A stretch of DNA of 64,000 nucleotides from Hyphomicrobiales bacterium (GTDB taxonomy: Bacteria > Pseudomonadota > Alphaproteobacteria > Rhizobiales > Xanthobacteraceae): NCBI GenBank assembly GCA_017305715.1, contig JAFKKG010000008.1, positions 372,001-436,000 on the forward strand, read 5' to 3'. Shown one piece after another: positions 28,178 through 50,732 of this stretch. Every line of letters begins with the position of its first letter. The first letter of the stretch is position 1. The notes under the pieces were generated by a model, which was given only the letters and a program-made list of their open reading frames with translations, had not been told where the DNA came from and searched no databases. The position numbers were made by a program, and so were the translations under genes.

Positions 28178-28362
28178 TTCTCGCTCCCTGATCCGGTTCT
28201 GTTTGGCGAGAAATTAACTCGTTAGATAAATACTGTCCAGTGGGTCTCCTGTGACATTTTGGGCCTCCTTTCCCGGCCATCTCCCGATGCGCAATGCGCG
28301 TCTGGGGGCGCGCGGCTGGTCCGCCTTGGCCCGCGAACCCGGGGGATCAAACCTCCGCTTAG

Positions 28363-28846
28363 GATTTTCAGAATCGTTGTCAAGCCCCAAAACGAAAAAT
28401 ATTTCGCTTTTCCGAAACGGCAAATCAGGGCTACGACCTTGCCCATCCCGTCCTGGTCAGAAGGGCGTCGGCCGTCGTCACGGACGTTGGGCGGGGAGCG
28501 GTGGACGCAAGGGTTGCGCTTGACGCGTGCAGCTCGGGCGTACGGCAAAAGCGTGTGGTCCTGACGCCGCGTTGCTGGCGTCCATGCACCTGGAGGCGTC
28601 TGACTTCCCAGGGCGCAACGGAGGCAAAAGAGCCGTTCTCCGGGGAGAGCACGCCATAAGCCGTAAAGCCATCGCGCAGGGAATGTCGGATGTTCTCCGC
28701 TGCCCTGTATGCTCATGTGCGCACTTTCCTGTGCACATTGCACATGAGACCGCGGGTGCAGCGCGCATCCGGCATTCCCTGCGCCCTCCATTCGAAGAGG
28801 GCGGGAAATAACAGCAAAGCTCGGGCGCCAAGCGCCGCGAGAAGGC
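28363..28846 (+). repeat. Dispersed structured repeat element, copy A (possible ncRNA)
   Basis: About 480 bases without a credible gene, matching 50250-50732 in inverted orientation over nearly its whole length. An outer 19-bp stem pairs 28674-28692 with 28766-28784 (one G-U wobble); inside it a 9-bp stem pairs 28712-28720 with 28740-28748; a 6-bp hairpin lies at 28563-28582. Between the copies the inner stem shows an A-T to G-C compensatory change. The left edge is AT-rich (AAAAATATTTC). I recall similar intergenic blocks in related genomes, where they generate spurious proteins. Whether it is transcribed is unknown. Confidence 0.75.
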
Positions 28847-28946
28847 GGACGTGCGTTTGGATGATGGCGCAACTACAGACACCGCCGTCGTTGCGGCCTT
28901 GAGCGCAGATGCGCATCTGAGCGCGCCGGGACGACGCAAGGGTTAT

Positions 28947-29654
28947 TCACACCGCTTGATGCGCCGCCGCCCGCAATCCCGTCGGCTTTGCCTTGCCGAA
29001 ATCCGCGGTGGATTTTCCGGTCAGGGCGGCCAGCACCAGCGCCACCATATGCGCGAGGCGCTCGTCCCTCGCCTCCTTTTTCAGGAGGTCGCGGCCGAAG
29101 ATCACGCTGAGCGTCGCGCTGTTCGACAGATAGAAGAAGCACAGGCCGGCGATCGAGATATAGAGCTGCACCGGATCGACGGCGACGCGAAAATCGCCGC
29201 TTTCGACGCCGCGGTTGACCACGGTGCGGATCATCTCGACGAACGGCGAATGCATCGATTTGACCTTGGTGGACCGCTTCAGATGCCGTGCTTTGGCAAG
29301 ATTCTCGGTGTTGAGCAGCGCCAGGAATTCCGGATTGCGCAAGAAATAGTTCCAGGTGAAATCGATCAGCCGCTCGATCGCCTTGGGCGGATCGAGATGT
29401 TCGAGATCGAGCCCGCGCTCCTCGGCGCGGATCTGCTCATAGGCGCCCTCGAGCACTTCCAGGTAGAGATCTTCCTTGTTACCGACGTGATAATACAGCA
29501 TGCGCTTGTTGGCGCCGGCATTGGCCGCGATGCGGTCAACCCGCGCACCGGCGAGGCCATGGGCGGAGAATTCCTGCTTGGCGGCCTCGAGAATGCGGAT
29601 CCGCATCCCTTCGGGGTCGCGCTGCCATTTCAGAACCCGTTTTGCCTTGGCCAA
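28947..29654 (-). CDS. TetR/AcrR-family transcriptional regulator
   Basis: A 235-residue regulator. The helix-turn-helix comprises RIRILEAAKQEFSAHGLAG and VDRIAANAGANKRMLYYHVG, where MLYYHVGNKEDLY is the usual recognition-helix ending. A long C-terminal ligand domain follows, with a stretch of hydrophobic helices (YISIAGLCFFYLSNSATL) that is common in regulators of catabolic genes. Its targets could be the ABC unit downstream on the same strand or the VOC protein upstream. The repeat at 29700-29784 separates it from the latter. No clean operator was found next to it. Confidence 0.9.
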   Translation of the reverse strand: MAKAKRVLKWQRDPEGMRIRILEAAKQEFSAHGLAGARVDRIAANAGANKRMLYYHVGNKEDLYLEVLEGAYEQIRAEERGLDLEHLDPPKAIERLIDFTWNYFLRNPEFLALLNTENLAKARHLKRSTKVKSMHSPFVEMIRTVVNRGVESGDFRVAVDPVQLYISIAGLCFFYLSNSATLSVIFGRDLLKKEARDERLAHMVALVLAALTGKSTADFGKAKPTGLRAAAHQAV

Positions 29655-50083: not shown

Positions 50084-50187
50084 TTCCCTCCCCCCTTGCG
50101 GGGGAGGGCTAGGGAGAGGGGTGATGTCATCGGGACTGCCCGTGTGGACCCCTCTCCCCCGCCCTCCCCCGCAAGGGGGGAGGGAGC
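50084..50187. repeat. Palindromic repeat pair, family 1
   Basis: Two inverted copies of the CCCTCCCCCCTTGCGGGGGA unit facing each other, nearly identical in plan to 2316-2458. Follows the Lrp gene and could terminate it. Confidence 0.85.
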
Positions 50188-50249
50188 CGACCGTTCGTGC
50201 GGTCGCATTCCGGATTCAAATTTCAAACAGCCAATGAGGCGCAGTTTGG

Positions 50250-50732
50250 CCTCCTCGCGACGCGTTGCGCCCGAGCCTTGCCAGAAACTTCCCGCCCTCT
50301 CCAAATTGAGGGCGCAGGGAATGCCGGATGCGCGCTGCACCCGCGGTCCCGTGTGCGGTTTGCACTAAGAATGCTGCACACGAGCATACAGGGCAGCGGA
50401 GAACATCCGACATTCCCTGCGCGATGGCTTTACGGCTTATAACGTGCTCTCCCCGGAGAACGGCTCTTTTGCCTCCGTTGCGCCCTGGGAAGTCGAACGC
50501 CCCCAGGAGCATGGACGCCAGCAACGCGGCGTCAGGACCACACGTCTTTGCCGTACGCTTCAGCCGCGCTCGTCAGGCGACAACCTCCGCGTCCATCGCT
50601 CCCCGCCCAACGTCCGTGACGACGGCCGACGCCCTTCTGACCAGGACGGGATGGTCAAATATGTGCCAGTGATTTGCCATTCTTGAAAACAGAAATATTT
50701 TTTATTCTGGGGCTGGACACGACTTCCGAAAA
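50250..50732 (-). repeat. Dispersed structured repeat element, copy B (possible ncRNA)
   Basis: Inverted copy of the element at 28363-28846. On the minus strand the same 19-bp outer stem forms with the same G-U wobble, and the inner 9-bp stem (50376-50384 with 50348-50356) carries a G-C pair where copy A has A-T, plus a U-G for U-A. On the plus strand these wobbles become A-C mismatches, so minus is the likely RNA strand. It begins 31 bases downstream of the LivF-like gene on that gene's strand, so it could be in its 3' untranslated region. The gap 50048-50762 otherwise holds no gene. Confidence 0.75.

What the first reader, a model, noticed from the sequence alone, without database searches (positions are those of the whole stretch)
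28363..28846. Dispersed ~480-bp element with covarying nested stems, a candidate structured ncRNA
Copies at 28363-28846 (plus) and 50250-50732 (minus) align over nearly their whole length. Each contains a 19-bp stem (copy A 28674-28692 with 28766-28784) enclosing a 9-bp stem (28712-28720 with 28740-28748). In the inner stem copy A has an A-T pair where copy B has G-C, and a U-A in A is U-G in B. Both copies keep a U-G wobble in the outer stem. On the opposite strand these wobbles would be A-C mismatches, so selection appears to act on an RNA of defined polarity. The loop sequences differ completely while the stem lengths are kept. I recall similar blocks in Bradyrhizobiaceae that are usually mis-annotated as proteins, but not a described function.
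Basis: partly seen in the sequence, partly recalled or inferred. Interest (0 to 1): 0.78.

Follow-up and report, generated by a model that had tools for sequence, protein, structure and literature searches.

The report
Dispersed, homogenised RNA gene family
The window holds two of roughly 80 similar copies of an apparently undescribed folded-RNA element of about 400 bases, found in one order of bacteria, whose copies sit at scattered places yet are kept alike within each genome, much as ribosomal RNA genes are.

Summary
In detail: the two copies are 85.7% identical over 481 aligned bases and carry the named stems. They belong to a large family: 79 strong matches in this genome, 82 in a close relative, and matches in 178 of 296 sampled genomes of the family. 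Some other families of the order have it; of 289 genomes sampled across the class only the window's own matched. Six helices show compensatory change beyond a tree-based null. In four of them G-U pairs far outnumber A-C mismatches on the stated strand, so selection acts on an RNA of that polarity. Outside the window's genus a sigma-70-like promoter sits just upstream (35 of 50 upstream regions; 0 of 590 control windows). In the window's genus it is absent (0 of 85). Copies lie between genes, in no preferred orientation, and copy A's site is empty in 10 of 10 congeners fetched. Unexpectedly, copies at sites shared with a close relative resemble their own genome's copies rather than their orthologues: concerted evolution. 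Rfam has no match, and nine text searches of open papers found no description. No transcript has been shown; function and means of movement are unknown.

The parts
28363..28846 (+). copy A of the element (RNA strand +)
   Evidence: 85.7% identical to copy B; one of 79 strong covariance-model matches in the genome
50250..50732 (-). copy B of the element
   Evidence: found in the genome as G000:C1:422249-422732
28394..28445 (+). upstream region at the place where other genera have TTGACA-N17-TATATT; no canonical promoter here
   Evidence: 0 of 85 upstream regions in the window's genus; consensus scan finds none
28446..28496 (+). P1: 28446-28454 pairs with 28488-28496; near the probable 5' start of the RNA
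   Evidence: 5 compensatory events vs 0.7 expected, 0 of 200 simulations; GU:AC 87:14; partly found by RNAalifold
28563..28582 (+). P3 hairpin, 28563-28568 with 28577-28582
   Evidence: 20 compensatory events vs 2.5, 0 of 200; but 77.3% paired and 44 breaks vs 36.4 expected
28619..28642 (+). P4 hairpin, 28619-28623 with 28638-28642
   Evidence: 13 compensatory events vs 1.1, 0 of 200; but 81.0% paired, 44 breaks vs 41.6, GU:AC 26:26
28641..28671 (+). well conserved stretch with no pairing found (GGGGAGAGCACG..AAGCCGTAAAGCCA)
   Evidence: alignments across genera and families, by eye
28674..28784 (+). H1 outer stem, 28674-28687 with 28771-28784 (14 bp)
   Evidence: 7 compensatory events vs 0.2, 0 of 200; GU:AC 102:8; 99.2% paired
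28712..28748 (+). H2 inner stem, 28712-28720 with 28740-28748
   Evidence: 19 events vs 0.8, 0 of 200; GU:AC 98:9; 92.8% paired
28754..28770 (+).
   Evidence: 6 events vs 0.1, 0 of 200; 96.8% paired; found by RNAalifold
28820..28841 (+). terminal hairpin, last conserved structure; no U tract
   Evidence: 95.5% of cells paired in 31 sequences; no intrinsic terminator found on the + strand
50312..50422 (-). copy B: outer arms 50404-50422 and 50312-50330, inner arms 50376-50384 and 50348-50356

Best explanation
The element is a gene for a structured non-coding RNA, about 390 nt here and about 380-580 nt in relatives, present as a dispersed multicopy family. Shown by computation: the fold is under selection on the + strand; relatives carry a promoter-like sequence just upstream; copies sit between genes in no preferred orientation; sites differ between lineages; and copies within a genome resemble each other more than their orthologues. 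Inferred: the transcript acts in trans as a folded RNA, probably with a protein partner, so its action does not depend on the gene beside it; new copies arise by rare DNA-level insertion that carries the promoter along; and copies are kept alike by gene conversion. Whether the RNA serves the host or mainly its own spread is open; I lean slightly to the host because the fold is kept across families.
For: Compensatory change beyond a tree-based null in six helices; polarity from GU:AC in four. Promoter-like sequence in 35 of 50 upstream regions of other genera against 0 of 590 control windows (sequences). No coding inside and neighbour orientations 9/8/7/6 over 30 loci. Copy A's site lacks the element in 10 of 10 fetched congeners and the L005 site in 6 of 6; both sites and that of L012 carry it in G546. 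Concerted evolution, 28 shared sites of which 20 measurable: orthologues 77.5% identical against 76.3% for non-orthologous pairs, flanks 86.9%, within-genome 86.0% and 80.5%; best match at home for 53 of 53 and 52 of 53 copies; 2 genome-label changes on the tree against 36.3 for shuffled labels.
Against: No transcript seen. The canonical promoter is absent in the window's genus, 0 of 85; no terminator found. The promoter pattern was written after looking at the sequences. In a per-pair test only three column pairs reached E of 0.1 or less, all three helix pairs. Hairpin P2 had 0 compensatory events. P3 and P4 break as often as the null or more, and P4 shows no polarity. A small orthology signal remains (34 of 2000 permutations reach it). 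Of the 28 shared sites only 7 match on both flanks. In genus g23, 9 of 30 genomes gave no match, so retention is not universal as far as this model sees. No partner protein, insertion mechanism, exact ends or target duplication identified.
Confidence: 0.55

Rival explanations
1. A non-autonomous transposable element (MITE-like). The RNA serves its own mobility, or is a by-product; high copy number reflects bursts from a source element in each lineage.
For: About 80 copies, no preferred orientation, lineage-specific sites; copies cluster by genome; some g23 genomes gave no match. Coxiella QMITE1 is a precedent for a 300-400 bp repeat with sigma-70 promoters giving sRNAs (PMC5896051, abstract).
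Against: No terminal inverted repeat joining the two ends of copy A (copy A only). A burst alone does not explain why copies at sites shared by two species resemble paralogues rather than orthologues. Compensatory change across genera and families.
Confidence: 0.3
2. A DNA-level repeat: its palindromes are bound by a protein or serve recombination or chromosome organisation, without RNA.
For: Strong palindromes; flank comparisons hint at rearrangement points at two elements.
Against: GU:AC 102:8, 98:9, 18:2 and 87:14 on one strand; better fold on that strand; promoter-like sequence in other genera.
Confidence: 0.07
3. A cis-acting RNA (riboswitch, attenuator or 3' UTR structure) for neighbouring genes.
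For: Lies in intergenic space; at two g23 sites lies beside hisZ or ribBA.
Against: Neighbour orientations 9/8/7/6 over 30 loci; the neighbours identified differ at the four loci examined.
Confidence: 0.05
4. A short protein gene.
For: ORFs of 101-216 aa overlap it.
Against: At most 18 of 53 copies have any one frame free of stops; lengths modulo 3 are 0, 1, 2 in 29, 7 and 17 copies; no Pfam or NCBIfam match at cut-off for five ORFs; no coding signal inside 30 of 30 loci.
Confidence: 0.01

Closest known systems
QMITE1 of Coxiella burnetii (PMC5896051, abstract read)
   Same: 300-400 bp, about 50 copies, sigma-70 promoters, source of small RNAs
   Different: QMITE1 is described there as a typical MITE with short direct repeats; here the fold covaries across genera and families, copy A has no end-to-end inverted repeat, and copies evolve in concert
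Br-REP1 and Br-REP2 of Bradyrhizobium (PMC5082802, abstract and passages read)
   Same: dispersed intergenic palindromes, transcribed, in Bradyrhizobium and relatives
   Different: consensus of 20 and about 40 nt; neither occurs in the window with up to 3 mismatches
Mobile/repeat sequence candidates of RNA-discovery screens (PMC11109978, two passages read)
   Same: structured, multicopy, inconsistent orientation to genes
   Different: predicted there to be selfish and often linked to transposase-type genes; here none of ten neighbouring ORFs at four loci is of that kind, and the genome was not searched for a partner
Large bacterial RNAs in Rfam such as HEARO or GOLLD (names recalled)
   Same: large, elaborately folded, some linked to mobile elements (recalled)
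   Different: no match in the window at gathering scores; only three weak hits to unrelated families in the element region
Rhizobiales-1 motif (PMC2864571, table row only)
   Same: a candidate RNA from the same order, without an Rfam accession in that table
   Different: its sequence was not seen (supplements closed), so identity is not excluded

Membership tests
MITE | terminal inverted repeats | tested here: not met
   seven inverted repeats in 28300-28960, none joining the two ends; copy A only
MITE | target-site duplication | not tested
   exact ends could not be fixed
MITE | copies at lineage-specific sites | tested here: met
   two sites tested by sequence in congeners
Rfam families (release 15) | score at or above the gathering cut-off | tested here: not met
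   0 matches in the window; weak hits only, below cut-off
Br-REP1/Br-REP2 | published consensus | tested here: not met
   0 matches in the window with up to 3 mismatches
independently transcribed ncRNA gene | conserved fold with compensatory change | tested here: met
independently transcribed ncRNA gene | own promoter | tested here: inconclusive
   35 of 50 in other genera, 0 of 85 in the window's genus
independently transcribed ncRNA gene | a transcript | not testable with these tools
   no RNA data available
Rhizobiales-1 motif | its published alignment | not testable with these tools
   one table row in the main text; supplements closed

The most novel reading that the evidence does not exclude
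A roaming host RNA gene: a structural RNA with a role in many bacteria of one order, whose genes change places like a mobile element but, in genomes with many copies, are homogenised by gene conversion as rRNA genes are. This would be a bacterial ncRNA gene family under concerted evolution outside the rRNA and tRNA genes.
Probability: 0.28. Interest if true: 0.86.

Novelty: new variant of a known kind. Interest (0 to 1): 0.72.

Why it matters
It would be a large RNA family without an Rfam entry in bacteria that include nitrogen-fixing symbionts and laboratory phototrophs (genus placement inferred or recalled), making up to about 38 kb of this genome (79 x 480 bp). It makes two questions testable: what a 400-nt RNA kept at one to eighty copies does, and how dispersed intergenic copies are homogenised in a bacterium. 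It may also account for some spurious small protein calls and for assembly breaks.

Tried and rejected
Protein coding, rejected. Known RNA family, none found. Known Bradyrhizobium REPs, not these. tRNA-linked insertion: 0 tRNA genes in 55 loci. Carriage by plasmids or phages: no match to copy A; 0 model hits in 16 viral contigs that held the pattern. P2 hairpin and RNAalifold's alternative small helix in the 5' block: no compensatory events. A 3' tail motif (TGTTTGA..GAAT) was in 5 of 53, 2 of 54 and 18 of 133 copies (0 of 179 control stretches) and left out as not general. I first took G540 as occupied at copy A's site because its gap is long; the sequence shows no element.

A claim I withdrew: I had written that 18 of 18 genomes of genus g23 keep the RNA, but those 18 handles had been chosen because they matched. 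A search of the genus gives 21 of 30. I lowered the best explanation from 0.60 to 0.55 and the novel case from 0.35 to 0.28, and raised the transposable-element rival from 0.25 to 0.30 for that reason.

Literature: nine text searches found no description; only open-licence PubMed Central papers are held and supplements were closed. Word searches in the main texts of three screens found none of the Bradyrhizobium-type genera asked for.

Selection and drops: the first 40 genome copies were those most like copy A, which inflated within-genome identity (89.4%); with 20 others fetched it is 86.0%. Four G546 loci (L147-L150) were left out as duplicates or partial; one more duplicate (L393) was found later and removed. 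Copies shorter than 370 nt were not measured, so 20 of 28 shared sites count. For P1, 84 of 89 collected sequences were aligned; for H1-H3, 131 sequences, with only 8 of the window genome's first 71 loci kept and short or low-scoring ones dropped. P3 could be read only where an anchor word was found (59 sequences, 58 used). One search used 30 of 40 loci, those with long flanks.

Full report
OBSERVATION. Copy A folds to -233.7 kcal/mol on the + strand, z -6.45 against 100 shuffles, and to -208.3, z -3.62, on the other. Rfam has no match in the window at gathering scores, and the three weak hits in the element region are to unrelated families.

COPY NUMBER AND RANGE. A covariance model R1 (206 positions, 30 pairs) was built from 31 sequences, five of them from this genome and the rest from relatives. 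It gives 79 matches of 108 bits or more in this genome; many lie at contig ends, so a few may be counted twice. The close relative G546 has 82 at E 1e-15 or less. Within the family, 178 of 296 genomes and 26 of 47 genera match at E 1e-6. In an order-wide sample 30 of 397 match at 1e-4; 12 of these are in other families, seven at 33-80 bits and five at 27-28 bits, the latter doubtful. In a class-wide sample of 289, at E 1e-6, only the window's own genome matches. The family, order and class searches score only 6-8 candidates per genome with strict filters, so absences are soft.

NAMES. R1 was run on all 118: 54 score 25 bits or more (37 of 80, 17 of 38), among them Rhodopseudomonas, Afipia, Nitrobacter vulgaris, Tardiphaga, Pseudorhodoplanes, Pseudolabrys, Ancylobacter and Bosea. 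By title (placement of genera recalled) 53 of the 54 are Hyphomicrobiales; the other is titled only Proteobacteria. Three further loci scored 17-21 bits, one of them a Rhodocyclaceae MAG. The remaining 61, such as Pseudomonas, Burkholderia and Chloroflexi, gave no hit at E 0.01. The window's genus is unnamed; Bradyrhizobium is my inference.

STRUCTURE. On the 31-sequence alignment RNAalifold finds H1, part of H2, H3 and the terminal hairpin. 98.3% of cells are paired, with 81 two-sided changes against 22.9 shuffled, 0 of 500. Because copies are related, I wrote a tree-based null: parsimony ancestors, the same substitutions per branch placed at random by column rate, 200 simulations. Compensatory events, observed against expected: H1 7 vs 0.2, H2 19 vs 0.8, H3 6 vs 0.1 (131 sequences), P1 5 vs 0.7 (84 sequences); P3 20 vs 2.5 (58 sequences), P4 13 vs 1.1 (104 sequences). 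No simulation reached the observed value in any of the six. Pair-breaking events are below the null in H1 (8 vs 34.4), H2 (30 vs 69.5), H3 (13 vs 20.4) and P1 (23 vs 40.2), but not in P3 (44 vs 36.4) and P4 (44 vs 41.6), which are less secure and harder to align. A stricter per-pair test gives only three pairs with E of 0.1 or less, two in H1 and one in H3. Hairpin P2 is not supported (0 events). A switch between the two was not tested.

POLARITY AND PROMOTER. G-U against A-C cells on the + strand are 102:8 (H1), 98:9 (H2), 18:2 (H3), 87:14 (P1), 40:16 (P3) and 26:26 (P4). In other genera a TTGAC..TA promoter-like sequence lies directly upstream of the first conserved stem, in 33 of 35 cases ending 7-8 nt before it: 35 of 50 distinct upstream regions, 0 of 590 control windows from the same loci (sequences; the pattern was written after seeing them). 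In the window's genus 0 of 85 have it, although an A-rich upstream stretch is shared by many of its species (by eye). Either a different sigma factor is used or transcription there is weak or lost; this is the main weakness.

WHERE IT SITS. In 30 of 30 loci with long flanks a codon-usage script calls no gene inside the element; the four neighbour-orientation classes hold 9, 8, 7 and 6 loci. Copy A lies between an ABC-transporter permease and a TetR regulator, copy B between an ABC ATPase and an Lrp/AsnC regulator. No reading frame is conserved.

SITES CHANGE. Fourteen congeners were searched with the flanks of three copies. For copy A's site ten were fetched, and the profile finds no element in 10 of 10. 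For the L005 site six were fetched, again none, 6 of 6. In the closest relative, G546, contigs that begin or end in the element adjoin the flanks of copy A, L005 and L012.

COPIES EVOLVE IN CONCERT. Flank matching between 69 own and 70 fetched G546 loci (two of them repeats of others) gives 28 shared sites: 7 matched on both flanks, 19 on the right only, 2 on the left only. Yet at the 20 measurable sites the element itself is only 77.5% identical, hardly above non-orthologous pairs (76.3%; permutation mean 76.8, 34 of 2000 as high), while flanks are 86.9% and within-genome identity is 86.0% and 80.5%. The 7 two-flank sites average 78.7%. All 53 own copies and 52 of 53 in G546 have their best match at home, and the tree needs 2 genome-label changes against 36.3, at least 29, for shuffled labels. 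Gene conversion is the simplest cause; repeated independent insertion at the same sites is the alternative. Caution: right-side flank alignments outnumber left-side ones, 30 to 12, and two own copies have left and right flanks that match different G546 copies. These are draft assemblies, so rearrangement between copies and assembly error cannot be told apart.

LOW-COPY RELATIVES. In genus g23, whose sites match named Ancylobacter genomes, 21 of 30 genomes have a match: 13 have one, the others two to four; 9 have none at E 1e-4. The model is weak there (best match per genome 38-54 bits), so the nine may lack the RNA or carry a divergent one. Sites fall into a few groups shared by subsets of genomes, for example beside hisZ or between aroC and ribBA. 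So the RNA can persist at very low copy number and at different places; this neither proves nor excludes use to the host.

KNOWN OR NOT. The nearest published analogue I saw is Coxiella QMITE1 (abstract). Br-REP1 and Br-REP2 (passages) are different sequences. A TSS study of B. japonicum says nothing of it in the passages seen. Weinberg's Rhizobiales-1 cannot be excluded. Nine text searches found no description; they cover only open-licence papers.

Noticed in passing
window 28208-28240: AAATTAACTCGTTAGATAAATACTGTCCAG, upstream of the ABC permease gene, is conserved with few changes in the 10 congeneric orthologues fetched; a likely promoter or operator.
   Followed up: no
window 50100-50220 and right flanks of many copies: Other dispersed palindromic repeats (for example CCCTCCCCC...GGGGGAGGG, or GTCGTCCCGGC...) start some tens of bases after the terminal hairpin of many copies and differ from copy to copy (by eye).
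   Followed up: partly
L036, L399 (own) against L377/L341 and L368/L386 (G546): Left and right flanks of one copy match flanks of two different copies in the relative: rearrangement at elements or assembly error.
   Followed up: partly
own vs G546 flanks: Right-flank alignments are found more often than left-flank ones (30 against 12), partly because fewer left flanks are long enough; unexplained.
   Followed up: no
many contigs of G000: Many matches lie at contig ends, so the element is probably a frequent cause of assembly breaks (not counted).
   Followed up: no
about 28688-28692, 28754-28759, 28766-28770 in copy A: Two stretches compete for the same 3' arm, and both pairings show compensatory change (6 events each); a possible conformational switch.
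   Followed up: no
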